From Gaertneriomyces semiglobifer (Eukaryota > Chytridiomycota > Chytridiomycetes > Spizellomycetales > Spizellomycetaceae): a stretch of 64,000 nt of DNA. The notes beneath the pieces were generated by a model. That model made no database searches and had not been told where the DNA came from. It worked only from the letters and a program-made list of their open reading frames with translations. Position numbers and translations under genes: made by a program. Numbering within the stretch: position 1 is the first letter of the stretch; every line of letters begins with the position of its first letter. The DNA is taken from assembly GCA_025558075.1 (NCBI GenBank), contig JAHLKF010000032.1, positions 1-64,000 of the forward strand, in the 5' to 3' direction. This document shows, in pieces, positions 1 through 63,882 of the stretch.

Positions 1-12
1 TAACCCAGATTT

Positions 13-90
13 CAACAATGTCCATTTTGAGCCAGCAATGTCCATTGTCAGTCAGCAATGTCCATATGACTCAACAATGTCCATTGTCAC
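13..90. repeat. Four imperfect ~20-bp tandem repeats
   Basis: The core CAATGTCCAT recurs at a spacing of 20, 20 and 19 bases, with units starting near 13, 33, 53 and 72. The last unit runs into the left arm of the palindrome at 85-136. The array lies at the extreme left end of the viral fragment, just past and partly inside the 3' end of the penton-like reading frame. It may be a viral non-coding repeat or an assembly-edge product; the sequence alone does not decide. Confidence 0.8.
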
Positions 91-912
91 AGTGCAGACC
101 GACATTGCATATGCAATGTCGGTCTGCACTGTGACACTCGTATCAAAGACGTAGATAGGTGTTGGGTCCTCATAATGAATCATATCAAATGGTAGCGCGT
201 TGACAGGTATCTTTGCCAACACCCCGGCGTTTTGCATGGCTTTTCCGCTCACATGCACGTAACGGGAAATCCTAGCACCCAAAGTGTCACTACTAAGAAG
301 AAGGTAACTAGGGCTGGTGGGAAAACACGGGTAGGGTGGGTACACTATATAAGCGTATGCACCCAGTGGTCCAGTCTGTAAGGTGGGCGCAATTTCCTCA
401 GAAGGATATCTTCCACGGTCGAAACCCAGCAAACGGAAACTGTCATGTGTATGTTGAAGATCTTCTTCTTTTCCTTCAGGGTCAAGACCAAAGACCAATG
501 CAAACTCCGTACTTTTGCTAAAGACTGCATAGGTACTTGTACGAGCCTCATAGTCGATTTCCAAATCCAGACCGGCTTCCAAGAATTGATAACGTAGCTC
601 TCTCACTATTTCTTCGGCAGAGTAGTTTCCCTCACGAATACGTATGGCGGTACGTTTTGTCTGATCCAGGTCCAGTTCCTCCACGTAAAAAACGTTGTTG
701 CTTTTGTTAAAAGAATAATACACATATGGGATATCGGCACTGATGACTTTGATACCCAAAACGTTGTTCAAGGGGTTGCTCAACATGAATACAGGATGGC
801 TGTTGGTACCGTTGTCCCGTTGTGAGGAATCAAAGTGAAGTTCATGATAGACGTAGACGTCGTTGATGCCAACAGTTTGAATCGGAGGTCGGAGGGGAAC
901 AGCTTCGGCCAT
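52..912 (-). CDS. Penton-like minor capsid protein of a polinton-like virus
   Basis: About 286 residues from an ATG at 912 in the context AAAAAACATGGCC; the frame is open further upstream but only with a GTG. The length, the beta-rich composition and above all the position directly after the major capsid gene on the same strand match the single-jelly-roll vertex protein of polinton-like viruses and virophages, where penton and major capsid genes are usually adjacent. The N-terminal half has the alternating hydrophobic pattern of a jelly roll (for example VLGIKVISADIPYVYYSF). The last 25 or so residues come from the palindrome at 85-136 and the repeats beyond it, so the true C-terminus is probably lost or altered. 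Assignment rests on pattern and context, not on a diagnostic motif. Confidence 0.65.
   Translation of the reverse strand: MAEAVPLRPPIQTVGINDVYVYHELHFDSSQRDNGTNSHPVFMLSNPLNNVLGIKVISADIPYVYYSFNKSNNVFYVEELDLDQTKRTAIRIREGNYSAEEIVRELRYQFLEAGLDLEIDYEARTSTYAVFSKSTEFALVFGLDPEGKEEDLQHTHDSFRLLGFDRGRYPSEEIAPTLQTGPLGAYAYIVYPPYPCFPTSPSYLLLSSDTLGARISRYVHVSGKAMQNAGVLAKIPVNALPFDMIHYEDPTPIYVFDTSVTVQTDIAYAMSVCTVTMDIVESYGHC
85..136. repeat. Perfect 52-bp palindrome
   Basis: Two 26-base arms meet at 110/111 with no spacer and no mismatch; the symmetry breaks at the 27th base. The palindrome lies inside the last 30 codons of the penton-like frame, so the encoded C-terminus there is read partly from an inverted copy and is probably not native. 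It could be a fold-back chimera made during sequencing or assembly, or a real hairpin of the element. Confidence 0.9.
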
Positions 913-974
913 GTTTTTTCCAAGAATAAATACAGTATCACGTATGTAGTTCACTCATATTACATTGGCGCATT

Positions 975-2474
975 CTATTTGATCAGTTCTACAACATTGT
1001 TCTCACGCAGGACCAACATTGCATCGTAATAAACAAACGTGTAGTAATAAGTCTCTGGAGACTGTTCTGAACTGTAGTTGATCACAAGTGCAATGTCGTT
1101 TTGTTCTTCTCCGTTGATACCAGAAATCTCTGTACCATCACTTGTCTCGAGGTTGCACGCAATCACAAAGGCGGAGGGACCGTCAATGGTTTCGTTGCTC
1201 ATTGCGTCTTTCTGTTCTTCACCGATCCAATCACAGAAAATACTCTTGTCATCGCCACGAGCCCAACGTGTGCTGTTCAAACCTGTCGTTACACGATAAT
1301 CCCCAACAATATTCAACGCTTTGGCGAATTCCCAGTATGCGTCAGCAGCACCGTTGGTGGCAGTGTCCGTTCCACATACCACAGGTTGTGCGGGATGGTA
1401 TTTACCACCGATACGCCATTGAAAGTCCACCACATGTCCAACACACCAAGGTTTCTCCATGGCGTTAAAGTATCCAGTCGAGGACTGTAAAAAGGCATGC
1501 GAATCTTTGGGATATTTCTGGTCCACGTTGGTACCTTTTCCAGGTACTTGCACATTGAACACGGCCTTGATGGATCGGTTCCGTTCAGGGATCGTCAGGA
1601 CTTGTTTGTTGGACTTGTGAGGTGTTGCGATAAAACAATCGTAGGTCGCAAACTTGATAGGTACGCCACCCCCGCGTAATCCTTCCAACATTGCTTCGTC
1701 ATATGTGGCATCAAATTCTAACAGTTCCAGATTCAAAGACACGTTGGTCAATTCAAAATAATCCTCGAGTTGTTTGTTATCGGTCTGAGCCACACAATTT
1801 TCATAATCTGCCAATTCCAGTTCGATGGCCAGTTGCGATGCCATCCATTTGAGAGGAATGAGCTTGCTCTGTTGAAATAGGCCAAGGGGTAACTGAATGG
1901 TGTACTGTCGATTCACTACCATAGCCGCTGTCAAAGAGTCGTCCTCCGTAGACTTGCTAGTACCTCCTTGGATGTCTGCAAACCGTGTGTTCGTCACCGA
2001 CACTTTCTTTCCAACTTTATCCCAACATTGTGTAGTTCCTCCAACACCTTCGGCAATACTACTCTGAGCACTCACGCCTGTCGTGTTGTTGGTAGCACCC
2101 TCCGTCAAAACCCGCGTTAAGATGCCAGCATTTTGCAAGTCCTCAAATGTCATCGATCCATAGGAACATCGGATACGTCGAAAGATACTCGCAATATTGT
2201 TCTGGAAGCGTGGGAGGGGTGTGCCAACCGTTCGAGTTTTCAGGACGTGTTTGACTTGAAAGGAGAGAGAGTGATTTGTCGGGTTCAAGTATCCTGTAGC
2301 TGGAAGTTCGAGACGAATGGTGTTCTGCATACCGGACCGGAAGTCGAACCCGTTCTTGGGTGGAATTTTCACTAACGTCTTCCATGCTCGACTCGCTTGT
2401 GTCGGATACGAGTACTTGGCGTTCCACGGAACCACCTCTCCCACACTGTCGTGGATCTTGTAATGAGACGCCAT
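975..2474 (-). CDS. Major capsid protein, double jelly roll, polinton-like virus
   Basis: An intact 499-codon frame. PLV-type capsid features are visible: an N-terminal strand ending in LNPTNHSLSFQV, then a segment around residues 90-125 with FRRIRCSYGSMTFEDL followed by a leucine-rich turn. Next comes an insertion rich in Thr, Ser and Gly (residues 125-180), and the second jelly roll opens with YTIQLPLGLFQQSKLIPLKW and LAIELELAD. Length is normal for the family. The protein forms the pseudo-hexameric capsomers of an icosahedral shell. It is the most secure viral gene here, and its intact frame contrasts with the broken neighbours. The gap to the penton start (912) is 62 bases, consistent with a late structural cluster. 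No canonical TATA box is evident upstream. Confidence 0.85.
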   Translation of the reverse strand: MASHYKIHDSVGEVVPWNAKYSYPTQASRAWKTLVKIPPKNGFDFRSGMQNTIRLELPATGYLNPTNHSLSFQVKHVLKTRTVGTPLPRFQNNIASIFRRIRCSYGSMTFEDLQNAGILTRVLTEGATNNTTGVSAQSSIAEGVGGTTQCWDKVGKKVSVTNTRFADIQGGTSKSTEDDSLTAAMVVNRQYTIQLPLGLFQQSKLIPLKWMASQLAIELELADYENCVAQTDNKQLEDYFELTNVSLNLELLEFDATYDEAMLEGLRGGGVPIKFATYDCFIATPHKSNKQVLTIPERNRSIKAVFNVQVPGKGTNVDQKYPKDSHAFLQSSTGYFNAMEKPWCVGHVVDFQWRIGGKYHPAQPVVCGTDTATNGAADAYWEFAKALNIVGDYRVTTGLNSTRWARGDDKSIFCDWIGEEQKDAMSNETIDGPSAFVIACNLETSDGTEISGINGEEQNDIALVINYSSEQSPETYYYTFVYYDAMLVLRENNVVELIK

Positions 2475-2577
2475 CGTGCTCTCCCTCCAATAATACTCGG
2501 ATGCACACTATATTGAATGATTTTTGAAAAGAAATTGTAGCATTTTTAAAAACAGGCCCCTTCCATCATCTTGTAAC

Positions 2578-3655
2578 CTAATACCTCCAAGGTCTCGGAT
2601 GAAGCGGTCGAACTGTGACTGTACCATGCTTTTGACCGTTGTCCATTTTCTGACGCTTCTTTCGACCCAATGGGGTGTAGTCCACTTTGCCCCCGAAAAT
2701 GTTGTGGAGTTCATACATTTCACTACTGGTGTGTTTGCCTAATGTAGTCCCACCGGCATTCCCCTTTGATATGACCTTTGTACGTATAACGTCCGTGATC
2801 GCTTCTTTAGTATGGCGTTTATTTTCCGGTGACTTTCTTGTTATCAGAGAGGACGGTGGTTGCTGTTGTAGCTCCTTTCCCTCCACATAAACACTTTTCT
2901 TTGCTTTGACCTGATCCTTTACAGGTTCTGGTTTCTTATGGGCTTTTGATGTGGTATCTACTTCCATGGGTTCTGGTTTCGTCACACTCTGTTTCTTCTG
3001 GGCTTTCGATTTCTTATCCACTTCCATGGGTTCTGGTTTGCTGTGACTTTGTTTCTTTACAGCCTTGCCCCTCTTTTCTGTTTGGCTGGTTCATTTGTTG
3101 GACTCGAGTCCACGACCATAGGTCGTGCTACGTCGCCTTCAGGTACAGGTGTGTGGACGTTGATCTCTCCTGACCGAACTTTGTTCATATATGCTACCGG
3201 CCCGCCATGATGGGCGATCAAGCGTTTCCGTTCTTCTTGTGCCTCTTTCTCGTCCGCTGATGGAACACCATGTTTTTCCTTGTTGGGTACTGTCGTGTGT
3301 CTTTTCGGTAGAGAAGTTGTCGGCGGCAGCAGCGTGTCCTGTTTTAGCTTGTCTAACCAATTCGTTACCTTTTGTTTTGGATCAACTTGTACATTTGGTT
3401 CCTCATCGTCTTCCTCTTCCTCCTTTTTGTCGGGGAGGTCTTTTTCACGTGTTCCTTGACGAGGTTATTTGGGTCGTTGTAGCTGGTACCCCCACGCCCT
3501 CGTCGTTTTTTGAACTTGAGTTTCTCTAATGGCGCCACAAAGACAGCCAGCTTGCGTTGAGGAATCGTTGGGACGTCTCCCAATTGGTTCAAGAGGATCT
3601 GCGAACGTGGGTCGGCGTTCATTTTGTTCGCCCCAATATGATGAGATGCACACAA
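2578..3655 (-). pseudogene. Frameshifted basic/charged viral protein gene
   Basis: Three consecutive open stretches in two reading frames join into one plausible product of about 350 residues. The N-terminal part (best start at 3622, MNADPRSQ) is basic, with KLKFKKRRGRGG. The frame changes near 3445 inside an A-run and continues as a strongly acidic, then Lys-rich region. It changes again near 3065 by a G-run and finishes with two copies of KPEPMEVD and a basic tail. Both shifts sit in homopolymers, so they may be decay or base-calling error. No family is recognised. Its place upstream of the major capsid gene suggests a structural or DNA-binding virion protein; that is inference only. Confidence 0.55.
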
Positions 3656-3673
3656 AAAGATCAGCTAGATAGT

Positions 3674-6600
3674 ATGCAACCGACAGTATACGTAGCCAAC
3701 CAACAATGGGTGGCTCCACTATTGGACGTCGACCGGGCGGAGTAGGCGGTGTGAGTGCTGATGTTCCTCTCGTTGTGGATAGTAACAACAAGATTACGCT
3801 TCGTTTGGATCCAACGTCGTTGAAAATCAATGAGGACGATCAGTTAGCAGTGAAGGCCGACATCCCCGCCCTTATACCTGACCATGCACCACCTTTACTC
3901 ATCGACCAAGAGAATGCCGTTGTAACACTCAAACTGGACAGTGAGAAGTTTCGAGTCACACCTCAAGGAGCTCTGTCGACTACCAAATCGTTTGACGCCC
4001 CCATTATAAAACACCGGGGAATCCTAAGATCCAACTCAAATCAGATGATACCTTTTTCAAGGTCAAAGAAGACGGAACACTCACGATCAAAAATATCGGT
4101 GCCCGCCAAGTTCTTTTTGGAAGCGGTTCCGACAGGGATGACCCCAACAACCCTGACGGTTATGAATGCAGCAAGGAATTCTTTTTTGGAGAGCTTCCCT
4201 TGGGACCGATCAGTTTAGGTGCTGTCTACTCACCGATATACATCACTTCGGGAGGTTTCAACATTCTCAATGTGATGGAGTTCCCTGACAATGTGTGTGC
4301 ACCTGTTTTCTACGTCTGGCGATTCATGCGACCGGGGAAAGACTCTCCTGTATCTATCACAACCACTCCAAGAAAGGCGGGGACGTTCAAGAAAAAGGAA
4401 CTCAACATTCGTTACAAACCTCCTCTCAATGTTGTGGATACTGAGGATCTCTACACCGACGAAGAGCTTCCATTGGATGATGATACTGGAATGCCCTATC
4501 AACCGAAAGCGCTTACAGTCATCCACGACGATACACTGGTTGTATTACCTGCCAACAATATCGAGAAACCGCCCGGTCTTAGCATCAATTTTCATCATAT
4601 CCTGGATCGAAAAACCCTGACTTATGACAAAGCTAAGTTTCAAATGTCCATCAACCATGACTGGACACTTCACACATACGATCCCCAACCAGACAATGAT
4701 ACCACCAAACCGGCCAAGTTGGCAAGCTTTGGCGTTCAATTTGACACCAACACAATGATGAAGCAGTTGTTAAGTCCACCAGCTGAATATCCCGATCCGG
4801 ACGCTGCTGGTCGTCTAGCGGTTCGTACTGAAGGATTGATTGATAAGAGGACACTTCGTATCAAAACAACCCAGGATGTATCCAACCGTCCTTTGTATTT
4901 AATTGAAGTGGATGTCAAGAACCTGATTGACAATCAGACATTGAACGTTGACACTCATCCGGACACGGGAGAAGTGAAGATCAAAGTGGACCTAACCAAA
5001 CTGGTGGACAATGCGACTCTAACAACGGTAACCTCACAGGATGGTTCTCATCGCATCATCAAAGGAAATTATCATGGCAGTGGAGGTATCAGTGTGGATA
5101 ACAACACCGGCAAAATCTCTGGAAATTACAGTGGTGGAACTGGAATAAGCATCAGCAACGGTGTCATCAGCTTAGCGACAAAAGCTCCAGGACAAGGGAG
5201 CTCGGCAGCTGGAGATCTTGTCAAGGAAGGTGTTGCTGGATCTTTGGGAGGTTTAGCAAACAGTGTTGTCTCTTGGTATGCCAACAACGGTACCATCATT
5301 ACCATGGGTGCTTTGGCAGCGTGTTTAGGACTATCGACCGCAGCCATTGCTAAAGCTTATGGTGGTTCTAACGGCGCGGACGCCTTTGTAGTGATTGTAG
5401 ACGAGGATGGCAATGCTCGAGCATTCTACGATCATAATGCTACGGGTGATCCGGGCTCAGCGTATGAAGGAACAGAACTGGTCAATTATCGTACATTGCA
5501 ACAGGAAATTCAAAAAGCCATTGATCAGGGTGGTGATGATGGTGGTGTCCCAGATGATGATGATGATGATGATCAAATCAAGACAGTGGAACTCGACATG
5601 TCCGATCGTAACATTGTCATTGCCCATCGTTTTGGACCCTTGTCGATTCCTATCTATTCATTATCCAATGTGGAACGTCTGATTCAAAGGGGGAGACTCA
5701 AGTACATCGAATTTGATGTTTGCCGTACCGTGGATGGTGTCTGGTACCTGTCACACAATGATATGGAAGAATACGAGTACCCTGGAAATACTTCTGGACA
5801 ACTCCAAAAGGGGCACCTCAAAACTGGATGGTCCCATCTCTTTGATGGACAACCCTTACCCACCCTACGTGAAGCTTGGGACGCTTTGAGAAAGTATCCT
5901 CAGGTTATCATTTTCTTGGAACTCAAAAATGGAGACCCTACTGCCTTACTGAATGAATGTCGAACCATTGGATTGACTCCGGACCGAATGGTGTTCTCTG
6001 ACTTTGAACTTCAACAAGTGGCATTGTTCAAAGCAGCTGGGTATCTCACTGTGTGGATGGTCAACAACCCAACCCTTGTCCAAGCTCAAGATCCTACAAC
6101 GTATGACCACCTCTGTTGTTCCCACGATCAGTTGAGTACAATGTACCCTGTCGTTGACACTTTGGAGAAGTATCTGTTCCTATACACTTTGGATTCACCT
6201 CATCAGTGGAAGACCTACCGAGAAGAGTATGAGCGTGTCGTTGGCGCGTACGCAGATGCACCCATACCGGTTTCACAATGGTACAGATCATTTGCCCCGT
6301 ATCATTGGGAATGTTTGGATCCTCTCAACGGATACGTATCCACGAAATTGTTTTATGGTGCAGCTGGCAAGCCGCGGTTCGCTCGTTACGATTGGCTACC
6401 GAAAAAATGGGCAGCGCGATTGTCTGTTGCGGGATCGCCAGACAATTTGGATCAGATGTATGGGGCCGTGTTTCACAACTACAATCTCGATGCAACCGTT
6501 GAAGGACGTATCCGGCTCAACGCTGTTGGTGAAAGCACCAGATGGTTTGGTGTCCTTATTCGTATGTTTGATACGTACGAAGTTGACGACCAACCTGGGA

Positions 6601-8738
6601 GCCGACCACCGCAAATCAATATCCTCTTCCGGGCCAATCGTGTGGTGGATGTATATACACGTTTTAACAGTGAGCCGACAAAAGTGGCTTCTGCAACCCA
6701 CACTCTAACGGATCCGCGCCATCTCTATTTCCGTATCGTGCGTCAGACGATCTCCAACACGGTCGAGCTTTCAGTATACGTCGGTAACACCCGATCCGAA
6801 TTAGTTGCGTCACCACGAGTGCTTCTGTACACATTCACCAATGTGACCAACACACCTTGGTTAAGTCTCGGACACTTGACTTTGTTGAGCAACGGTGTGA
6901 ATCAAGGTTACATTGAATACTATGTTCCGAAATCGCCAGTTACCATTGCAACCAACGATACCACGCATTACATGGAATACACCAACATTGAAACAACAGG
7001 TTCCATGAACGTTGGCAGCAAGGCTGTGAATACCACATTGGTTCAAATGATATGCACCAACCGATTCAAGCATGCGAATGCTTTTACACAAGTACGCCTT
7101 GCTAACGACACCACCAAGGGGGCTTTTCTCCAATACAATTCATCTATATACACCGGCAACGGTGGACCGAACACCTGTATGTTGCGTAATACCGGTGGAG
7201 GGTCTCTGCTACTACAGTCCGACAATGTGAGCGGCGGAATTGCCGTGGAACCTGGGACGGGGGATGTGAACATGTTGGGTAACCTGAAAGTGAAGGGTGT
7301 GCCCATAGGTGCCCTGGCACTTAAACAGAGTCTGGACTGGAATAGCGACGATATCATCAACAAACCGACACTTGCTACTTTGGACAACAATGGCGCTATC
7401 ACGGTTAACCAGGCCAAGTTCCCGTTGGGAACACTTTCCAACTGGGACAATCGAGACTTGGTCTTCCCCCCGGCAACATTTCAATCCACCCATACTTCGA
7501 CATTCGTTGATTTACCCTATGGGAACGGTACTTATGAGGCGTCAGCGAGTAGTTCGTTCTACGTAAATACGGGTCCTGGAGGTGGTTTTGGATATGCTGG
7601 GAACGGAGGTTCACCTTCGTGGAGGACAGTCACCACCGCATACAATGCAGCTACAGGAGCATATGTATTGAATGCAACAACCCCAAGTAACCAAGGAGAT
7701 CTAAAAGGTGAATGGTTTCAACTACGATTGCCAGAACCCATCTTATGTAAGAAGCTCACTTTTACGTTGGTGACAATCGGAGTGCCTGCTGCTTATACTC
7801 TATGCGGATCAATCGACGGTGTTACTTGGAATGTTCTACTCTCTGTGGCGGACGCTCAACTGAGCCCAAGTCAGACCTCCACAGTGCCTGTGAGCAGTGC
7901 CCAACCATGTTCCTATTTGAGATTGGTTATTTTGCGCACGAACGCTGCACAAACATATGGCGATGCGATTTTGAAGATGGTCAAGTTCACCGGAGACTTG
8001 ATATCGAAAAACGGTATCTCTTTGGATACATCGTTGAATGTTGTGGATACTGTTCATTGTGGGAAGGCTCACGTCTCCAACGAGTTTCGTGTTCAAAACC
8101 GACAACTGGGCGATTTGGCTTTCAAAAATACGCTGTCCTATGAGGAGCTCACTGGTAAACCTGTTCTCCCTGTGGCTACGACTCAGAATTCCGCAGTCTT
8201 TCGATTTACCAACTACACTTGGGCACCTCCTTCGGACCGAACACTGGGGTATTTCGCTTTCGAAGCGATATCAGGTGTTCCGACAGGGGATTTCGTACCT
8301 GCAGTAACATATATGTCCGCACCATCGGGAAGCATCCGTTTAGGTTATGTGACGTTACCAACGGGTGTGTACGCTTTCAAAGTACACCTTACTTGGAAAT
8401 CACCACTACGTAACCAATCCACTACCTACGAGTGGCGTTTACAGGCAAACAATGTTGTGCGCGCCGATAATGGTACCTATTTAGTTTCGACGTTGTTGGG
8501 TCAAAGCAATCAGTTGACATTCAAAGAATCTGGAGTGACGACTACTACGGCTGGATCTAACCAGTCACTCATATTCGATATATGTGTTCATATAAAGGAG
8601 GTGACGAATTACCAGAACACCGTTATGTTCAGAATGCTTTACCCTTATACTACGATTACTACGGATATACCTGACGCTGCACCGTTCGCACTCGATGATG
8701 TTACCATGTCCTGGTTTATAGTAACTAAAGTTGGTTGA
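3674..8738 (+). pseudogene. Giant fibre-like virion protein with GDPD, F5/8C-like and knob domains; two frameshifts
   Basis: Likely start at 3674 (MQPTVYVANQQWV). Frame shifts near 3740 and near 4015 (a G-run) lead into an uninterrupted 1512-codon stretch from 4200, about 1,687 residues in all. In order: shaft-like repeats (nt 4850-5170, NLIDNQTLNVD / KLVDNATLTTV); a hydrophobic helix (5290-5360); a run of seven Asp (near 5555); a GDPD-like domain (5600-6110); a concanavalin-like beta region (6400-6960); tail-fibre spacers such as LGDLAFKNTLSYEELTGKP (8100); an F5/8C-like lectin fold (7640-8010); and a C-terminal beta knob (8190-8735). The GDPD segment keeps AHR, IEFDV, the following His and FLELK, which match the usual catalytic residues, although HRG has become HRF and the ENT motif is lost. 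Probably a trimeric host-attachment spike acting on lipid head groups or wall phosphodiesters (inference). Confidence 0.7.
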
Positions 8739-8746
8739 ATAAAAAA

Positions 8747-8755
8747 TATATAAAG
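8747..8755 (+). promoter_or_regulatory. TATA-like element before the VLTF3-like gene
   Basis: TATATAAAG lies 61 bases upstream of the ATG at 8808 and directly after the fibre stop codon. Similar elements sit 63 and 73 bases before the next two viral starts, so spacing is nearly constant. Confidence 0.55.
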
Positions 8756-8807
8756 GGCGATACACTTTTTTCATCTCTTTTCCGGGTTACCGAGCTTTTT
8801 CCAAAAC

Positions 8808-9643
8808 ATGTCCAACACATACCTGTCCATGCTTGCCGAGTTGGGGATCGAGGTCAGTCCTGATGAATGGAACTCGGCCCACAACGTTCCTAATGATCCT
8901 GCGCCACGTTCCCACCATTGTTACCCTCTGAGCCGGCGTATTATGACTCAGACGACGATCATCTTCCGATATTCACGTCGTCGCAGATTGCTTGGTGCGA
9001 CCCTGAAACTTTTGGGTACCACCGGTACTGTGTTGTTGAAGATGAGGAAACTGCGCATCCCATGGTTATGGATTATCAAGACGAACAACAATGGAAAATG
9101 AACCGCCAACGTACACACCACTATGATCGACTTTATCGAATACGTAGAACCTTCTTTCAGCTTCTAGGACATGCGACCACCAAACTGCCGCCCACATTGG
9201 AAAGTGACTTAAAGAAACACATCCACGGATCCCTGTTGATGTCTCGCAATATCTATGAAGTTATTCGAAAGTACCTAAAGCAACGCAAGCTCCCTCATCT
9301 TTATCCCGCTATACCCCTACTGATTTCCCGGCTTGGTGGTCCACGGTGGAACGTTCCGTACCATAAGGTGCAACTTGTTCTGGAAGATGCCTTTCAACTT
9401 CATCGGACTTTTGATTACCTCAAAAAACAAGGATCGCTTGGTCGCCAACGGTTTCCCAAGGTCCAGTACGTTGTGCTCATGCTACTTCATCGGCATACTA
9501 TCCTACCACCCTATCGGATCCCTTGGGCTCGTACAAGTATAAAAAGGAAGCAACTCTCCCAACTACTTTCAAACATGAAGGAGCAGAATCCTGTCTTACA
9601 ATGGGCAAACGACAAGCCCAAGACAGACCAGACCACACGTTGA
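8808..9643 (+). pseudogene. VLTF3-like late transcription factor candidate, one frameshift
   Basis: ATG at 8808 in the context CAAAACATG. The frame runs about 33 codons and shifts near 8905 by a short C-run. It then continues to a stop at 9643, roughly 278 residues. From about 9080 the pattern resembles the poxvirus A1/VLTF3 family of large DNA viruses: a basic helix with RTHHYDRLYRIRRTFFQLL, a helix with IYEVIRKYLKQRKLPHLYP, then ISRLGGPRW and a late segment FPKVQYVVLMLLHRH. The zinc-binding N-terminus usual in the family is not evident. Homology is proposed from pattern only. If right, it would activate the capsid genes. The 3' end contains the TATA box of the next gene and overlaps its start by 43 bases. 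Confidence 0.4.
9538..9547 (+). promoter_or_regulatory. TATA-like element inside the VLTF3-like gene
   Basis: TATAAAAAGG lies 63 bases upstream of the ATG at 9601 and is embedded in coding sequence of the preceding gene, as expected in a compact viral genome. Confidence 0.5.
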
Positions 9644-10128
9644 AACGAACTGTTTCGGCTTACGACAACATTCAACGCTTTGTAGCAAGACATATTGATT
9701 TTGTCAAACATCCGTTAGATGGTCGGCGAGTCTCCAACGAACTCTTCTACGATGTCCGAATTGTTCACACCCTCGATGCAATCACCAAGCTCCAGTTGTT
9801 CACCTATTTCGATCGCGGTATTGGACGACGTATCCTCTTCTGGGCCCATGCTGTCTACTCGGTCGGAAAACGATACACATGGATCAACGAACATATTCCA
9901 TTGTGTCCGTTGTACATCGAAGGGTTTCCAGATGAACTCGAACTTGCTAGAAGAATCGACAAAATTTCCAACGACGACTGTCCCACCAAACCGTTGGAAG
10001 TCATGTGTTGGAAGATTAAACCGCATAGGCGTCGCATTCAAGCACAAGATCGTCAAGGGAATATTTACATGTTGAAACACCATAATATCTGTTGTGTTGA
10101 ACAACCTGTCGGATACATCCAACAATAA
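9601..10128 (+). CDS. Viral protein of unknown family, paralogue A
   Basis: A 175-codon intact frame starting MGKRQAQDRP; the frame is open upstream but the first ATG is at 9601, 63 bases after a TATA box. I do not recognise the family. It is clearly related to the next gene: both begin with a Lys/Arg-rich head, continue with RFVARHIDFVKHPLDGRR (A) or AFAYRHVVIVKTPLSGRF (B), share RxLHSLD/TLDAxxxLxLF and RILFWAHAVY/RLIFFWDHCIY, and end in a strand with NGNTY/QGNIY. Copy A has an extra segment of about 45 residues before that strand. The shared aromatic core suggests a small globular domain. Position among late genes suggests a virion or regulatory role (inference). Confidence 0.7.
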   Translation: MGKRQAQDRPDHTLKRTVSAYDNIQRFVARHIDFVKHPLDGRRVSNELFYDVRIVHTLDAITKLQLFTYFDRGIGRRILFWAHAVYSVGKRYTWINEHIPLCPLYIEGFPDELELARRIDKISNDDCPTKPLEVMCWKIKPHRRRIQAQDRQGNIYMLKHHNICCVEQPVGYIQQ

Positions 10129-10158
10129 GACCATGGTTTTAAATAACGATGTAAAAAA

Positions 10159-10166
10159 TATAAAAG
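10159..10166 (+). promoter_or_regulatory. TATA-like element before paralogue B
   Basis: TATAAAAG in an A-rich stretch, 73 bases upstream of the ATG at 10232. Confidence 0.5.
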
Positions 10167-10231
10167 CTCTACACTGTTCGCCACTCCCTCGAAACATTTC
10201 TATAGTGTTATTTCAGTTCTCATTCTCACTC

Positions 10232-10615
10232 ATGGTCAAGCGTAAAACCGAAGCCGATGATGCTTGCGACGATGCCCTCAAGCATACCCTCAGAGTCACC
10301 GACCCTATTGCAGCGTTTGCTTATAGACACGTTGTTATTGTCAAAACACCTTTGAGTGGTCGCTTCATGAATGCTGATTCTTTTGCATTTACACGCCTTC
10401 TCCACTCTCTCGATTCTGCTGTTGGACTGCACCTGTTTGCAGCACTTGATCCTCGCTTCAATCGATTGATCTTTTTCTGGGACCATTGTATCTACACCGC
10501 TCGCCCCTATCCTTACGGTAGTGTTTGGAAAGTGTTACCGACAACCTTCAAAGTTCAAGTTCAAGGTCCCAATGGAAACACATACGCGATTCAACACGAC
10601 AGTACATGTGTATGA
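10232..10615 (+). CDS. Viral protein of unknown family, paralogue B
   Basis: A 127-codon intact frame beginning MVKRKTEADD. It is a tandem paralogue of the gene at 9601-10128, shorter because it lacks the segment between the FFWDHCIY core and the C-terminal strand. Conserved points include the His in YRHVVIVKTPL, the LHSLD motif and the aromatic pair in FFWDH. Each copy has its own TATA box, so they are probably separate transcripts. The duplication with divergence suggests different partners or a role where sequence change is favoured; no function can be stated. Confidence 0.7.
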   Translation: MVKRKTEADDACDDALKHTLRVTDPIAAFAYRHVVIVKTPLSGRFMNADSFAFTRLLHSLDSAVGLHLFAALDPRFNRLIFFWDHCIYTARPYPYGSVWKVLPTTFKVQVQGPNGNTYAIQHDSTCV

Positions 10616-10734
10616 CTCACTTTCATAATTAGAACATGAATGTTTGTGTTTGACTACCCCTTAAATTTTTTGCGAAAGCTTTTATGCTGCAAAGGCTCTC
10701 CTATTTCCTGTTCTCTGCCTCACATCTCTCAAAC

Positions 10735-11190
10735 ATGGCCAATCACAATACTATTCACGATGATTCTTCCTCTTCTCACCCTCCTCCTCCTCCTCCTCCA
10801 CCACCTTACGTCGCCACTCCAAAAGGTGCCAGGTCGCTGCTCCGTTGTTCCGCCTGTCTCAAAGCCATTTCCCCCGACGCTCCTCGGGCCTACACCAATT
10901 GTTACCACTTTTACCACCTCCGCTGTGTCGCTACGCTTCCTAGTATGGTATGCAGCGGTCCTTTTTGTTCGGCGATTCTAAGCCGCCCTGTCGAAACGGT
11001 CTGCTGTTGCCTTTGTAAAAGCGAGGTTGCCGGTCTCTTGAAACTTCCAGGATGTTCCCATCTCTACTGCAGAGACTGTTTTATCCGTACCATCAATAAG
11101 GACTATATGTGCTGCGTCCAGTGTAAGCTAGACGGTGGAGTGAACATTCTCAGCACGCACATTCGTCTCGATGGTGCCTTTCCACAATAA
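10735..11190 (+). CDS. Double RING-finger protein, probable viral E3 ubiquitin ligase
   Basis: A 151-codon product from the ATG at 10735 (CTCAAACATGGCC); the frame is also open upstream to 10684. Residues 16-24 form a proline run. Two zinc-binding modules follow. The first has CSAC, then CYHFYHLRC and a closing Cys pair in CSGPFC, a RING-H2 pattern. The second has CCCLCKSEVAG, then CSHLYCRDC and CCVQC, a RING-HC pattern. RING proteins recruit E2 enzymes and transfer ubiquitin, and many DNA viruses encode them to redirect host turnover. It is the last viral gene before the tRNA, 24 bases from it. A host origin cannot be excluded, but strand, spacing and compactness fit the viral cluster. Confidence 0.65.
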   Translation: MANHNTIHDDSSSSHPPPPPPPPPYVATPKGARSLLRCSACLKAISPDAPRAYTNCYHFYHLRCVATLPSMVCSGPFCSAILSRPVETVCCCLCKSEVAGLLKLPGCSHLYCRDCFIRTINKDYMCCVQCKLDGGVNILSTHIRLDGAFPQ

Positions 11191-11214
11191 TGCCACATGG
11201 AAGAACAGATGGAG

Positions 11215-11285
11215 TCCCAGACTGGGAATCGAACCCAGGCCTTCCCCGCGACAAGAAGAGATACTAACCACTATACGATCTGGGA
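11215..11285 (-). tRNA. tRNA-Asp (GTC), intronless
   Basis: A complete cloverleaf of 71 nt on the minus strand. The acceptor arms TCCCAGA and TCTGGGA pair over seven bases. The D arm contains TAGTGGTTAG (A box), and the anticodon stem TCTTC/GGGGA (two G-U pairs) holds the loop TTGTCGC with anticodon GTC. The T arm is CTGGG-TTCGATT-CCCAG (B box). The 3' end of the tRNA faces the viral block. It is probably a host gene used as an integration site, though some viruses carry tRNAs. Confidence 0.9.
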
Positions 11286-11801
11286 TATGTAGTGTTCAAC
11301 TGAGTCACCCCCGCTCACTCGGTGTCACCTTCTCCCGGCCCCGTGGGTCCCGCGTCAATGCAAACTTTATTTCTTTCACGAATCTTTCATACATTTCCGA
11401 TTCTTTCCGTTTGTTTCATAATAAGACGCGCGTCATATGAAATATATCGCAATCCATTGAAATCTATTGAAATTTACTCCGCTTCCGCGCCCACTTTTGC
11501 GTTATCGATACCGAAAAAGGTGTTACAAACTATCATACCCCCTTCTCTCGCGCTTGAAACTCAAGAGTGTGATCCACTTTCTGACATTCTCAGCACATAT
11601 TGCACATAGCACATTCCTTCCCGATGTTCTGGGGGACATTCTGGTGTACGTACAGGGGCATATCTGCTATGACCCCGGTATTGGGCCCCCTGAACGCTCA
11701 TATCACTGCATACCACTGCATACCACTGCTTATTACGCTTATTACTGCACACCAACCGACCCCTCTTATTAAAACCGTTAAAAAAACAGCGCCCACAACA
11801 T
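11286..11801. other. Non-coding spacer between tRNA and transposon-linked gene
   Basis: No convincing reading frame. It holds a GC-rich patch (11310-11360) just upstream of the tRNA on its strand, short repeats of ATACCACTGC near 11710, and the motif CTGGGGGACATTCTGGTG near 11630. A near-identical motif occurs near 13360, and a related inverted one near 17530. The left end of the transposon probably lies here, but no terminal inverted repeat could be fixed. Confidence 0.4.
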
Positions 11802-13674: not shown

Positions 13675-16600
13675 TTATCGTCCTCTCCTCTTACGTCCTC
13701 TTCCTTCTCTACCTCCTCTACCTGTGCCTCTGGAGCCTCCCGCCGTGAACTGCCGCGACTGTGGATTTGACGCATCGACCATGATGAACGAGGCCTCTGA
13801 GTACGCAGTCTGCGAAAAGCTTCTCAAACTGCTGAGATCAAACTGTTCAGTTTCGTCGACAATTTGGATTGCGGCATCTGTGTGGGAGCCCACCGACTGT
13901 GCTTGGGAGCCACCTTCAGAATGTCCTCGGTGCGATTCTGCATTGGCAACCGCTCGATCGGAGCGTCGCCGCGCAAGGTGGGCCTGACGCTCGGTTCTTT
14001 GAATGTTCATCTCAATTCTTTCACCCAGTGCCTGCTGGATGTTCGTCAGAATGTCCACGTCGGGAATGTGGAAGCCTTTCGATGCCCAGGGAGTTGTATG
14101 ACAATGAATATTGAGGACAAATGGATCTGGTTGATCAAGGTGATTGTGGATGATGCAAGGTACTTGTTTTTCAATCGCAATACGTTCTTGGCGCACTGTC
14201 GTTGTTGTTTCGTAGGTGCATTGAGCTTGAGCGCAATGGTGCTGCACATTCAAAGGCCCAACAATGTCATCGGGTGCAATACATATGTGCGTCGGAGTCA
14301 ATTGCAGGATTGGCATTCCATACCAACGGGAAGTAACACCCTCTTCGCGCTGAATGACACACCCTTGGACTGAAATCAGAATGGCTCTCTGTGGCAGCGT
14401 TTTGAGAATCTCCACAACCCGGGCAATGAAATCAACCGCCTCATCATCGACATTGCGACGTTTGCCCATTATAAAGGTATCCACGGAGCATAGACGTTTT
14501 TCATCAAGCGCAAGGCTCTTCCATCGACGAACTTGATCATGAATCATTGGAACCGATAGATACCGCGCCGAGTGTGTTGACTCGAATGAAACCGGTGAGG
14601 GATCCAGTCGCCAGCGCAGCTTAAGATGGTTAACGGTGTCTTGTCTGTAGCCAAGCAATTGCTGTATCCTTCCCTCATAGAAGATACGTCTGAGTCCATC
14701 GCCCGGAGAGACCCAGCGCCCACATCGCAGAAACATTCCACCAGAAAACAAATGACGGACGGTATTATGTCGAGCGAACCTCCGCGCAATGTCTACCGAA
14801 GGTCCGTGTCGATTTGTATGAACTGCATGGTTGCGCATGACTTTGTTGAACGATTCGAACTTCTCCGACATGTAGAGAACTGCAGGACCAAACTGCCGGA
14901 TGTTCTCCTCGACATGAAGCAGAATGTGGAACTTAGCATGAGAGGATAACCATTGAACATCGACGTCGCAGATGCTAGCAATCATTGCATTGAGCGCGCG
15001 CTGCAGTGTGTCGAGGTAGATGTCCAGATGTTCGATACGTCTCGTGAACAGTAATGCCGCTACCGTCGCTAGGTATTGCCACGCTATGAGCCATTTTTGC
15101 GCCAACAACCCTTGGAATGCAAAGACAGCCACTTGAACAAAAGCACGTCGATCTTTGCCTTGCAATGACTTGCAGTATTGGACGAGTTGTTGACCACGGA
15201 ACGGACGCTGAAAGCCCACGGCACTGAGAGAGTTAATGCGCGTGACAAGTCGATTCTTTTCCTCATCGGTGAGCTCGTCGATCGATGCATTCATCAAGTA
15301 TTCGACGAGACCCAGTGATACAGTGTGCAGGATCTCCACAGGAATGTGCTTATGTGCATCGAAGTTGTAGCCCAGTTTGAACATTGGACTTATCTGATCG
15401 CGGACGGGACCAAAGCGCTGCTGCATATCCTGGAGAACATCCTCTTGCGTGCAACCTGGATGCTGGGCAACAAACTGACGCATGCGATCGATGAAATAAG
15501 ATGCGTATTTGCAATCAATACCGGTGCTCTTTTTGGCAATGTCTAACGCCCGCTTCGTCGTCTCAGGTTTGGATGCAAGGCTGAGGCGATCGATCAGCTT
15601 ATCCCTGGAGACATTCCACTGTCGCGCGAGGTGGGTTATTTGTGTCAATGCCTGCAAGCTTTCAACGTCGGTGCCCCGCTGAACATTACAGAATCGACAA
15701 AATCGCCCACCCCGTCGAAGATCAATGGTTGCTGCAAGCTCGTTGGCCATTGGATTGTCGCATTCAACCAAGAATACACCGCCAATTGCCAGGACATGCT
15801 CTTGCCGACGAGCATCGTATGCGTCAATGCCTTTCTCGATTCCATCAACGATGTCCTGGAGAACCTCTCGTCCAATTTGCAGCGGGGACAACGTATTACT
15901 TGTTGCGATGAAATGGACATTGTAATCAAGCTGGGTCTGCTCGAATGGAAGGCCGGCAAGCTGCATATACCAGTTATAGTGGGCATTCCACTTCTTGGAG
16001 ACATTCCCGGAGACGTCATCACAAAAGAGGATGAGAGGAATCATGACAACACGCTTGCCTTGCGCTTTGGTTCGCAGATGCTGTGCACGCTCGCTGAATG
16101 CTGATGCCTGTTCTGTTCTGTAGGAAACCCGTGTGACATTCCCCGCGCCATTCTCGCCTTCAACATAGCGACCGCGGATGACTGATGTTGGTGCGGGCGT
16201 ACAAACTTCAAGACATTCGATGGAATATTCGTGACTAGTTGCCGACAGCCAATACTCGTCGCCTTCCTGCTGAAGCGAAATACCTTTGACAAAGGTGACA
16301 TTGCCTCTTGAGAAGAAGGATTCAATGAGGATTAATACCCCTGCACATACAGCAAGCTCTCCGACGTAGAAATCTTGCCGATTGTGACGAATCATCGGTG
16401 TAGCAAATGCTGCGTCATTATTCCATCGGTTCGACTGGTACAGTTCAGCGACGGCATCGGCGGTATCCTCGGGAATTGTGCGCAGATGTTGCATTACACG
16501 CGGATTGGCCAGTTCAAGCTGAATGATGTTATTGACATCATTGACAAACACGACGTCACCGCTTGCCGTCATTCTCTGGTGTGTCTTTAGCATGCCGCTT

Positions 16601-17271
16601 GACTGCTGAACCTGATTCATCTCCTTGCGCACGCTCTTGTAGGAAGGAAGCGTGGCACCCAGCTGTCGTGCCCACCACCAAAGGATCCTTGCAAGAGATT
16701 CAGAGATTGGATGTCGTGGAAGTGTCAAGATAAGTGCACACAGAGCGCTTTCCTTGCTGGAGAATGGAACGTAGTCGCCTGATTCTCCGAATTGCAGAAT
16801 ATTCGACGGAAGGTCTTGATCATCGGAATCGGAATCGGAATCGGAATCAGTGGCAAATGCGGACAAGTGGGATTCCTCGTCATCAGTGATATCCGAGACA
16901 TCGTCGGCGACATCAGGAACTGCTCGATCAAACAACTCGTCGTTTATCTGTTGGAAAGCGCGCTGCTGCATCGACTGTTCTTGAAATGCCCATATATCGC
17001 TGCCCTGCGACTGCTGCTGCTGGATGTGCAGAAGGACATTCGCTGATTGAGAGGACATTTGTGATGACGCATTGCCGTATGGATCAGATTCAAGCGCTGG
17101 CTCGGTGGGTGCATCGCTTAAGTTGGCTGCTTCCTGCACTTGATTTAAGCGCAATGCCGCAATATGCCTTGCAGAGGAAATGTGTCGCTGGAGATTGAAA
17201 CGAGTATGCAGGATGTCCGTGAGACATATGCGACATTGCGCTCGAGATCCCCGGAGCTGAAAGACTTCCAT
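13675..17271 (-). CDS. Plavaka/KDZ-type transposase with N-terminal C2H2 finger
   Basis: An uninterrupted 1198-codon frame. Residues 15-37 form a zinc finger (CRICLTDIL...HISSARH). An acidic Ser/Asp linker lies near residues 120-165. The catalytic core matches fungal Plavaka proteins: DDVSGNVSKKWNAHYNWYMQ, VECDNPMANELAATIDLRRG followed by FCRFC, then HIPVEILHTVSLGLVEYL, and SSHAKFHILLHVEENIRQFG with SEKFESFNKVMRNH. These segments carry the acidic residues expected of a DDE-type nuclease. The C-terminus is Gly/Arg-rich. Such transposases are common in Agaricomycetes, so an intact copy in a chytrid-like genome is notable. The frame is open and free of stop codons, so the element may still be active. 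Its ATG at 17271 is directly preceded by a 30-bp tandem repeat. Confidence 0.85.
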   Translation of the reverse strand: MEVFQLRGSRAQCRICLTDILHTRFNLQRHISSARHIAALRLNQVQEAANLSDAPTEPALESDPYGNASSQMSSQSANVLLHIQQQQSQGSDIWAFQEQSMQQRAFQQINDELFDRAVPDVADDVSDITDDEESHLSAFATDSDSDSDSDDQDLPSNILQFGESGDYVPFSSKESALCALILTLPRHPISESLARILWWWARQLGATLPSYKSVRKEMNQVQQSSGMLKTHQRMTASGDVVFVNDVNNIIQLELANPRVMQHLRTIPEDTADAVAELYQSNRWNNDAAFATPMIRHNRQDFYVGELAVCAGVLILIESFFSRGNVTFVKGISLQQEGDEYWLSATSHEYSIECLEVCTPAPTSVIRGRYVEGENGAGNVTRVSYRTEQASAFSERAQHLRTKAQGKRVVMIPLILFCDDVSGNVSKKWNAHYNWYMQLAGLPFEQTQLDYNVHFIATSNTLSPLQIGREVLQDIVDGIEKGIDAYDARRQEHVLAIGGVFLVECDNPMANELAATIDLRRGGRFCRFCNVQRGTDVESLQALTQITHLARQWNVSRDKLIDRLSLASKPETTKRALDIAKKSTGIDCKYASYFIDRMRQFVAQHPGCTQEDVLQDMQQRFGPVRDQISPMFKLGYNFDAHKHIPVEILHTVSLGLVEYLMNASIDELTDEEKNRLVTRINSLSAVGFQRPFRGQQLVQYCKSLQGKDRRAFVQVAVFAFQGLLAQKWLIAWQYLATVAALLFTRRIEHLDIYLDTLQRALNAMIASICDVDVQWLSSHAKFHILLHVEENIRQFGPAVLYMSEKFESFNKVMRNHAVHTNRHGPSVDIARRFARHNTVRHLFSGGMFLRCGRWVSPGDGLRRIFYEGRIQQLLGYRQDTVNHLKLRWRLDPSPVSFESTHSARYLSVPMIHDQVRRWKSLALDEKRLCSVDTFIMGKRRNVDDEAVDFIARVVEILKTLPQRAILISVQGCVIQREEGVTSRWYGMPILQLTPTHICIAPDDIVGPLNVQHHCAQAQCTYETTTTVRQERIAIEKQVPCIIHNHLDQPDPFVLNIHCHTTPWASKGFHIPDVDILTNIQQALGERIEMNIQRTERQAHLARRRSDRAVANAESHRGHSEGGSQAQSVGSHTDAAIQIVDETEQFDLSSLRSFSQTAYSEASFIMVDASNPQSRQFTAGGSRGTGRGGREGRGRKRRGR

Positions 17272-61964: not shown

Positions 61965-62146
61965 ATGAGGATCGCACCTGATAGAATGAGTGATTTGGAT
62001 GCATTGTATTAATGATTCGCAAGTGGGGTACGCAAAACATTTAGTAGATTTGAGCAATTGCCGGATGTCTGTAATTAGACCGAGGTATACATGAATATCC
62101 CAATATACAAAACCAAAACAAGTGACCACTGGCGGGCAATGACTGT

Positions 62147-63882
62147 CTACTGCCTCAATTCGGCCCCCTCAAAGCGTCCGGCCTCCACTTCGCCTCTCAT
62201 CCTCAACACTTCACGTTCCAACACTCTCCGTTGTGTGGTCGCCCTCTCAGCCAGTTCCTCCAAAATCAACCTCGTGCTTCCGGGCATCTCCATACCCTCA
62301 ACTCTCTGTGCTACATTCTCCATCTGTTCCAACACTGTCTTCAACTGATTCGGCAGCCACGACACGATGGGCGACCCGCCAGTCGCAGTCGGATGCGAAC
62401 TGTGTTTCAAAATGTACTCTTTGGTAAAGTTCCAGTGACGGTGACGGAACGCTCTCGTCTGGTCCAACAAACTCAAATACAACACGGCCGACTCGGCGTC
62501 TTGCAGCGCGTAGTCCCGCACGCCCACTTCGGACGCACGGCGTTCGAGCCACGCGACCCACTGACGGTGGTCTCCCGGTCTGTAACTCCTAAAGTCACGC
62601 AAGATCTCTGTGAGCGGGTTTTGGGGCATGTAGCGGGTGACCTCCAAAAAGTTGTCGAGGGACGGGATGATACTGTCGTTAGCACCGCTCTCCCCTCTGT
62701 AGAACGTTGGGGTGGGGGAAACGCCTTCATAGACGACACCGTGCGGGAACATGGGCTGGTTCTTTGTTCCCATAATGAACGTGCGGAAATGGGTGTACCC
62801 GCCCGGCCGGGACTTTGTCCACATGGTTTCCATCTCGGCGTTGATGGTTTCCATGGTCGACAGCAGACGTTTAAGGGCCTGTGTGAAATCCGAGCGGGAG
62901 TTTTGCGCGGCGGCGTCAAGAGCGGAGAGGATGGAGGAGACTTGGTTCCCACTGTGGGCGACCATTGTTACGTGGGTCACGACAAAGCCGCGTTCGTCTT
63001 GGCATCCGCTGAAACGACGGATGAGATCGAGGTTCTCGTATTCAAGGCCTTTGGAAGCGTCGCGCTTCATGTAGTTGTAGAGCGCGTAGGATTGGGCGTA
63101 TTCCATGAACGGTTTGGCGCCGAGTTTGGTGGAGACGATGTGGAGTGGGACGGCGATCTGGCGGGGAAGAAGCGGGCGGCCGTATCCGTAATCCTTTGTG
63201 AGGCGGAAGGAAAGGTCACATGGCTCGAGGAGGTAAGCAGAAGCAGCGAAAGTGAGGTCGCGGAACAGGGCTGTTGTTGGTGAAAGAATGAAACAAACGG
63301 AAGAGGTCAGCTTTGCTTCAATTGCCTATGCCCGCATATCTAGTCACTTCTCATGATCTCTCGGGCTTCTGCCCACTTCCGACCAGTGTCGAACACATCA
63401 CCAAAACATTCGTCAAAGAAATAAAACGACTTACCAGTCAAAACCCTCACATCCCTCTCTGCTGTCACTGCCTTCTCCCACCGTTCACCCTCTTTCCTCA
63501 CACTCTCGCTATCCACCACGCCGCCAAATTTTCCGTCCTTCAACAGTCCAGCACTCCCATCGCGCTTCTCCAATGGCATTTCCTCCAGAATCTCGTCCAG
63601 GACTTTGTATTCGGCTGGAAGGCTCACGAGCGGGTCAGCAGTGGGCAAGAACCCGTTTTGAGGCGTAATGGTGAAGACGGAGGGGAAAACGGATGCTTCG
63701 ATGGCGTCAGTGGGAGCGGCGGTAGTGGTGGAAGGGAATGGAGTGGATGGCAGTTCATAGGATGTGGGTGGGAGAGGTGAGAACCCAGGGATGGTGGATG
63801 TGGTTGCCAACATCCTAGTCCGCATAACGGTGTTGGCGAGCCCGAGTGAGCGACGGAGGTGGGGGACTCCTGACAAGCGCAT
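62147..63882 (-). CDS. Indoleamine 2,3-dioxygenase (kynurenine pathway)
   Basis: Two exons (63882-63435, 63270-62147) give 523 residues. IDO landmarks in order: GFLPTADPLVSLP and YKVLDEILEEMPL, LFRDLTFAASAYLLEPC, YGRPLLPRQIAVPLHIV, FMEYAQSYALYNY, GGYTHFRTFIMGTKNQP, GVVYEG, RGESGANDSIIPSLDNFL, and HRHWNFTKEYI with the probable haem-ligand His, followed by ATGGSPIVSWLPNQL. The enzyme opens the indole ring of tryptophan to N-formylkynurenine, the first step to NAD or kynurenines. The first 30 residues are Arg/Ser/Leu-rich without acids (RLSGVPHLRRSLGL), like a mitochondrial presequence. That is unusual for IDO, which is generally cytosolic. A coiled-coil tail (VLEREVLRMRGEVEAGRF) extends the C-terminus. 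Confidence 0.93.

What the first reader, a model, noticed from the sequence alone, without database searches (positions are those of the whole stretch)
1..11200. Endogenous polinton-like virus in a chytrid-like fungal genome
Capsid, penton-like, fibre-like, VLTF3-like and RING genes are packed in two convergently ordered arms without spliceosomal introns, next to intron-rich fungal genes. No packaging ATPase, protease, integrase or polymerase is visible, so this is either half of an element cut by the window edge or a truncated insertion. PLVs are best known from algae and other protists; a fungal host would widen their range.
Basis: partly seen in the sequence, partly recalled or inferred. 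Interest (0 to 1): 0.9.

Follow-up and report, generated by a model that had tools for sequence, protein, structure and literature searches.

The report
Two nested viruses in a chytrid genome
The stretch is half of a virus genome (a polinton-like virus) built into the DNA of a chytrid fungus; a second, different virus-like element is lodged inside one of its coat-protein genes, at a spot that recurs in several other copies.

The parts
1..136 (+). End of PLV-B (its terminal repeat); 85-136 is a perfect 52-bp palindrome
   Evidence: 11 places at 98-100% over 132-136 bases, the window itself included; not present where PLV-A copies continue; palindrome checked
137..141 (.). Target-site duplication CTCGT made by the PLV-B insertion
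   Evidence: left junction (C19) ends and the window's right junction begins with CTCGT; the empty copy on C1 has it once
137..912 (-). PLV-A penton gene, first 259 of 332 codons, cut by PLV-B
975..2474 (-). PLV-A major capsid protein, 499 aa
2578..3622 (-). Unknown gene, split here in two ORFs (2578-3027 and 3365-3622); one ORF of 358 aa on C7 and 305 aa on C20, split also on C28
3706..4218 (+). Fibre-like ORF, 170 aa
   Evidence: weak Av_adeno_fibre match, E 0.001, below Pfam cut-off
4275..8738 (+). Fibre-like protein, 1487 aa, with a GDPD-like domain at residues 442-663 (window 5598-6263)
8808..9643 (+). VLTF3-like gene, split here near its start (8808-9101 and 9062-9643); one 278-aa ORF on C7
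   Evidence: Pox_VLTF3 E 3.3e-4, below cut-off
9601..10128 (+). Unknown ORF, 175 aa, paralogue of the next
   Evidence: 27% identity, E 7e-19
10133..10615 (+). Unknown ORF, 160 aa
10684..11190 (+). RING-finger protein, 168 aa
   Evidence: zf-RING_11 E 6e-4, below cut-off
11214..11285 (-). tRNA-Asp (GTC) carried by the element
   Evidence: ARAGORN, Rfam tRNA 46.6 bits; 11 element copies 96-100%, 7 other loci 86-90%
11324..11549 (.). Right terminal inverted repeat of PLV-A; outer end at about 11549
   Evidence: 82% inverted match at the far end of the C1 and C38 copies; flanks diverge right after it
11550..11723 (.). Host flank; an uninterrupted relative of this target lies on C7:166484-166660
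   Evidence: 82% over 171 bases, 98% over the first 50

Best explanation
PLV-A is an endogenous polinton-like virus of the virion-forming type, about 24-25 kb long, with inverted terminal repeats. Inferred life cycle: a B-family (probably protein-primed) polymerase copies the linear genome from the terminal repeats, the A32-like ATPase packages it into an icosahedral shell of double-jelly-roll MCP with pentons at the vertices, and the long fibre with its phosphodiesterase-like domain binds or trims the surface of the next host cell. VLTF3-like and RING proteins run late transcription and host manipulation. Copies then settle in the host chromosome without a clear target duplication, often at sites that begin G[C/T]G. 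Shown here: gene set (across copies), folds, terminal repeats, copies, and purifying selection on structural genes. Inferred: virions, replication mode, fibre function, integration route. A second virus of another gene plan, PLV-B, inserted in the PLV-A penton gene, most likely by its own chromodomain integrase (inferred from its 5-bp duplication and TG..CA ends); this junction is where the window begins. The most likely reason why the same junction recurs is one or few insertions, spread and evened out by gene conversion among PLV-A copies, and partly multiplied on paper by the assembler.
For: MCP and penton folds. ATPase Pox_A32 E 7.2e-7, above cut-off; 1076-aa polymerase, DNA_pol_B_2 E 9e-37. 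Terminal repeats. Low dN/dS: MCP window-C38 dS 0.135/dN 0.003, window-C1 0.154/0.010 (C-terminal 289 aa), window-C20 0.483/0.040 (whole); VLTF3 0.07-0.18 in 3 of 3 pairs. tRNA called in 10 of 10 other right ends that keep the segment. PLV-B: Prim-Pol 3.6e-26, rve 4e-10, Chromo 3.2e-15; MCP-B matches MCP-A by profile, probability 89%, E 2e-6. Junction: TG..CA ends and 5-bp duplication. Hint of gene conversion: C1 and C38 share 4.7 kb of flank at 99.94% but their PLV-A arms are 99.04% alike.
Against: No integrase or protease recognised in PLV-A. Virions, transcripts and reads were not seen. Some dN/dS pairs are not low: ATPase C1-C38 0.84 (12 changes) and penton C1-C7 0.51 (14 changes). VLTF3, RING, DUF5901 and fibre matches are below Pfam cut-offs. 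The penton model is weak (pLDDT 58.7). Several copies are broken or truncated. Gene conversion is not shown: C1 and C38 could be alleles.
Confidence: 0.88

Rival explanations
1. PLV-B is a site-specific hyperparasite: it repeatedly and independently integrates at one base of the PLV-A penton gene, as a homing element would.
For: Seven left junctions (C2, C19, C30, C34, C39, C47, C59) stop at one base, the base that the window's right junction starts from. Carriers {C30, C19} share alleles about 232-259 bp from the junction with empty C38, the other five carriers with empty C1, C7 and C20, so carriers are not one clade there. A 2.6-kb Prim-Pol stretch rounds to 100% in all seven while the PLV-A arms differ by up to 2.6%.
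Against: Five of the seven contigs end at the same PLV-B base, 14,789 bases in (my subtraction from contig lengths), as if the assembler reused one path, so identity there is weak evidence. C1/C38 hint at gene conversion. PLV-B ends on C43 and C35 lie outside PLV-A. RVE integrases with chromodomains are not known to be base-specific (recalled).
Confidence: 0.15
2. The recurrent junction is an assembly effect: one real PLV-B insertion, with other PLV-A left arms threaded into it through the repeat graph.
For: Same contig end and 100% identical stretches in C19, C30, C34, C39, C47. One right junction with the insert was found (the window) against seven left ones; C28 ends inside the penton gene before reaching the spot.
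Against: C2 (97% over a 2-kb core; tail of 14,751 bases) and C59 (tail of 16,228 bases) were assembled differently. An allele about 102 bp from the junction is found only in carriers C30 and C19.
Confidence: 0.3
3. A composite PLV-A+PLV-B element arose once and moved as a unit.
For: One junction with one 5-bp duplication.
Against: Divergence of arms and inserts is discordant: C2-C59 arms 99.93% but C2's PLV-B core is 97% and C59's about 100% to C19's; C59-C19 arms 97.7%. Empty C1 sits beside carriers C2/C59.
Confidence: 0.2
4. PLV-A is only a transposon that kept capsid genes by chance and makes no virions.
For: Broken copies and nested elements; no particle was looked for here.
Against: MCP and penton genes are under purifying selection in 9 of 10 close pairs tested, and the MCP has 118 listed relatives from other sources at 37-53% identity, of 603 found.
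Confidence: 0.1

Closest known systems
PLV of Spizellomyces punctatus and the 'S. punctatus group' (Bellas and Sommaruga 2021, PMC7805220; passages read)
   Same: PLV integrated in a chytrid of the same order (Gaertneriomyces; Spizellomyces recalled)
   Different: 52% of that group carry chitinase, which none of the ORFs scanned showed; their sequences were not on hand, so kinship of PLV-A or PLV-B to that group is untested
Tetraselmis viridis virus S1 (TVS1)
   Same: Penton and MCP models hit TVS1 proteins M4QZG2 (E 3.6e-11) and M4QM72 (E 5.9e-11) in BFVD
   Different: identity only 12 and 16%; many giant-virus proteins score as well or better
Polintons/Mavericks
   Same: B-family polymerase, A32 ATPase, DJR MCP, penton, terminal repeats (PLV-A); rve integrase with chromodomain and 5-bp duplication (PLV-B)
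   Different: no RVE or protease recognised in PLV-A; PLV-B has Prim-Pol rather than polymerase B in the part seen
Ngaro retrotransposons nested in endogenous virophages of Cafeteria (PMC8547959, passages) and retrotransposons in cryptophyte PLVs (PMC12220804, passages and section 16)
   Same: mobile element interrupting an endogenous virus
   Different: here the intruder itself encodes capsid-like proteins, and one base of one capsid gene recurs

Membership tests
Polinton-like virus (PLV-A) | double-jelly-roll major capsid protein | tested here: met
Polinton-like virus (PLV-A) | penton / minor capsid protein | tested here: met
Polinton-like virus (PLV-A) | A32-like packaging ATPase | tested here: met
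   Pox_A32 E 7.2e-7, above cut-off, on a sister copy; not in the window
Polinton-like virus (PLV-A) | linear element of 14-40 kb with terminal inverted repeats | tested here: met
   repeat pair on C1; about 24-25 kb reckoned from C1 and window coordinates, no single complete copy read
Polinton-like virus (PLV-A) | integrase (RVE or tyrosine recombinase) | tested here: inconclusive
   no Pfam hit at E <= 0.1 in the PLV-A ORFs scanned
Polinton (classical) for PLV-A | B-family, protein-primed type polymerase | tested here: met
   DNA_pol_B_2 E 9e-37; protein priming is inferred
Polinton (classical) for PLV-A | 6-bp target duplication | tested here: inconclusive
   flanks of different insertions into one target family overlap by 0-1 bp; no intact copy with both flanks was read
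S. punctatus group of PLVs | MCP of that protein cluster | not tested
   no sequence on hand
Virophage | virophage-type MCP and cysteine protease | tested here: inconclusive
   MCP model scores higher with PBCV-1 than with Sputnik/mavirus; no protease hit in the ORFs scanned
PLV/polinton (PLV-B) | DJR MCP, A32-like ATPase, integrase | tested here: met
   415-aa protein matches the MCP-A profile (no fold of its own predicted), Pox_A32 E 7e-7, rve 4e-10, Chromo 3e-15; read only to a contig end

The most novel reading that the evidence does not exclude
PLV-B is a hyperparasitic virus whose integrase homes to one base in the penton gene of another virus, disabling that virus's capsid while it supplies its own: a natural virus-against-virus homing system in a fungus.
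Probability: 0.13. Interest if true: 0.85.

Novelty: new variant of a known kind. Interest (0 to 1): 0.62.

Why it matters
DNA viruses with capsids are little known in fungi (recalled). A chytrid genome with two PLV lineages in several copies, one with capsid genes under selection, makes it testable whether such viruses still circulate in fungi. Recurrent insertion of one virus into another's coat gene, if real, would be a new form of virus-virus conflict. A relative, S. punctatus, can be transformed (abstract start of PMC7213984 in the listing), so tools for chytrids exist.

Tried and rejected
Contamination by a free virus: rejected, copies sit in large contigs. Window-edge palindrome as a mere assembly hairpin: rejected, the sequence has ten further near-full-length places. 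Insertion into a tRNA gene: rejected, the tRNA lies inside the terminal repeat and travels with the element. CpG loss as a sign of silencing: none, observed/expected 0.93-1.05 against 0.97 in the host part of the window. IMG/VR relatives: none by the single MCP or by its alignment, the latter with only two patterns. MCP by sequence against PDB: nothing meaningful (one chance row at E 0.42; none). VLTF3-like: none. Polymerase: one chance row at E 0.15. NCBIfam: 0 of 8 proteins matched. Penton homologs outside this genome: 1 weak. The MCP alignment A1 used 33 of the 120 listed homologs of 603. A first dN/dS script failed part-way after printing 0.17 for window-C1 over a longer open frame of C1; it was rerun with cleaner pieces. 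Papers on PLV with glycerophosphodiester phosphodiesterase: 0. Gaertneriomyces with 'virus': 3 papers, none on this by title; none of the 15 listed of 217 papers names Gaertneriomyces; PLV with 'chytrid': 3 papers; polinton with Spizellomyces: 2. Papers seen as passages: PMC7805220, PMC10675990, PMC10120064, PMC11071308, PMC12220804 (plus its section 16 in full), PMC8547959, PMC12721341; all others only as search listings.
Full report
Host and place. The window is the first 64 kb of contig C32 (164,520 bp) of a 20.86-Mb assembly. Two MCP relatives at 95-96% identity are named Gaertneriomyces semiglobifer and lie on contigs of 1,960,441 and 263,468 bp, the lengths of C1 and C28 here, so the host is that chytrid (Spizellomycetales). 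The right part of the window holds eukaryotic domains (GIT1_C and vinculin-like, VWD, ankyrin plus DIL) in 3 of 10 ORFs scanned.

The other half. DNA search finds five more MCP copies of near-full length, on C7, C28, C38, C1 and C20, plus two short matches on C45; the protein search shows the whole C45 relative (54% identity) and pieces on C8 and C15. In that search the MCP frame is uninterrupted in C32, C20 and C45, and in C1 from residue 3 on (a deletion took its first codons); it is broken in C7, C28 and C38. The other arm, read from C1, C38 and C2, holds the 332-aa penton, an A32-like ATPase (E 7.2e-7), a 1076-aa B-family polymerase open on C2 (E 9e-37), an ORF that on C38 ends in weak NUMOD4/HNH motifs, several unknown ORFs and the inverted partner of the terminal repeat. 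From these coordinates an uninterrupted PLV-A is about 24-25 kb; no single complete copy was read. The C1 copy lacks about 8 kb (window 2460-10408). The terminal-repeat query gives 41 rows: 11 ends with the tRNA (the window included), 22 places with the repeat core only, 7 loci with a tRNA only and one flank match (the tool calls such counts lower bounds).

Selection. Substitutions between copies are mostly synonymous: MCP dN/dS 0.02-0.12 in 3 of 3 pairs of window, C1 and C38 (C-terminal 289 aa) and 0.08 for window-C20 (whole); penton 0.11-0.15 in 5 of 6 close pairs, 0.51 in C1-C7; VLTF3-like 0.07-0.18 in 3 of 3; ATPase 0.84, 0.27, 0.17; fibre window-C28 0.22 on 12 changes. Synonymous change is saturated in pairs with C45. 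This fits copies seeded by a lineage whose capsid was in use.

The tRNA. It is called in 10 of 10 other right ends that keep the segment and is missing on C28. Element copies are 96-100% alike; seven other loci, taken to be host genes, are 86-90%. The window's copy has 72 bases, the others 73. tRNAs in PLVs are known (558 in the PLV/virophage collection of PMC12220804, section 16).

The contig edge. Homology to the copies on C1, C38, C20 and C7 stops at 137 (shown base by base for C1 and C7). Bases 1-136 are found at 10 further places at 98-100%. On C2, C19, C30, C34, C39, C47 and C59 the PLV-A left arm runs to the matching base and then enters the same sequence inverted. Empty site CCAGCG-CTCGT-ATCAAAG (C1), left junction CTCGT|TGTCACAG (C19), right junction CTGTGACA|CTCGTATC (window): a 5-bp duplication and TG..CA ends, as an RVE integrase would leave (recalled). 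Reading on from C19 for 14,789 bases to the contig end shows PLV-B: Prim-Pol (E 3.6e-26) with DUF5906 (E 4e-11; helicase part by recall), two related capsid-like proteins of 369 and 415 aa (26% identity, E 7e-33), an A32-like ATPase (E 7e-7), a conserved 205-residue piece that I take for a penton by its place only, and an integrase with chromodomain (rve 4e-10, Chromo 3e-15). The 415-aa protein matches the PLV-A MCP profile (probability 89%, E 2e-6) and has 11 relatives, 8 of them named, all from Gaertneriomyces and Phlyctochytrium arcticum. PLV-B-type integrases lie at 20 places at 59-100% identity, with 7 more at 26-32%.

Why one site. Near the junction the seven carriers differ from each other by 0.07-2.6% (about 1.5 kb; about 1.2 kb for C19, which has a rearranged stretch) and do not form a clade apart from empty copies, while the Prim-Pol stretch rounds to 100% in all seven. 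A 2-kb core rounds to 100% in five plus C59 and is 97% in C2. Five contigs (C19, C30, C34, C39, C47) end at the same PLV-B base, which suggests a shared assembly path. C1 and C38 share host flank at 99.94% yet their PLV-A arms are 99.04% alike, so either conversion between copies happens or these are alleles with different histories. I rank conversion plus assembly effects first and true base-specific targeting below them; the data do not exclude the latter. A separate PLV-B-like element also cuts the PLV-A ATPase gene on C20, and PLV-B-like genes lie near PLV-A copies on C1, C38 and C7, so nesting is common here.

Target of PLV-A. An uninterrupted relative of the window's target is on C7; next to the insertion point its left side resembles the left flank of the C1/C38 copy (18 of 19 bases by eye) and its right side the right flank of the window, with 0-1 bp overlap. 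Of 12 right ends compared, 7 flanks begin G[C/T]G and all 12 have G as third base, so the last bases of the repeat are uncertain by up to three. PLV-A therefore probably does not use an RVE integrase; its own integrase was not found.

What is new. PLVs in a chytrid and in Allomyces were reported in 2021 (PMC7805220, passages); the large 2023 survey left fungi out by design (PMC10120064, passages). As far as my searches go (open-licence papers only), new here are the two co-resident lineages in Gaertneriomyces, the GDPD-bearing fibre, and the recurrent PLV-in-PLV junction.

Noticed in passing
L019 (C20:340001-350000), 4061-8805: A PLV-B-like element (capsid-like piece, relative of the 205-residue protein, second A32 ATPase) interrupts the PLV-A ATPase gene after about 178 codons.
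   Followed up: partly
L025 (C45:1-10000): A diverged PLV-A relative (MCP 54% identical) with open MCP and penton frames, part of the fibre and a broken polymerase.
   Followed up: partly
L013 (C38:46001-56000) and L009 (C1:706001-716000): Further PLV-B-like lineages (ATPases 58% and 63% to their nearest, integrase pieces) close to PLV-A copies.
   Followed up: partly
L015:2617-4506: ORF next to the penton ends in NUMOD4/HNH motifs (below cut-off) on C38 (629 aa) but is 524 aa on C2: a possible homing endonuclease or its remnant.
   Followed up: no
L054, L055 (C35:115060-116705 and 90130-91780): PLV-B ends on C35 have identical, inverted 1.5-kb flanks: a hairpin-like assembly join or a real large inverted repeat.
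   Followed up: no
L038:181-1421: A right-end piece of PLV-A (window 10317-11553, inverted) abuts the left repeat of another PLV-A on C2: PLV-A nested in PLV-A.
   Followed up: partly
window 13675-17271: An intron-free 1198-aa ORF beside the element with a zinc-finger-like start (by eye) and no Pfam match; possibly another mobile element.
   Followed up: no
window 62126-63325: Long stop-free frames overlap on both strands.
   Followed up: no
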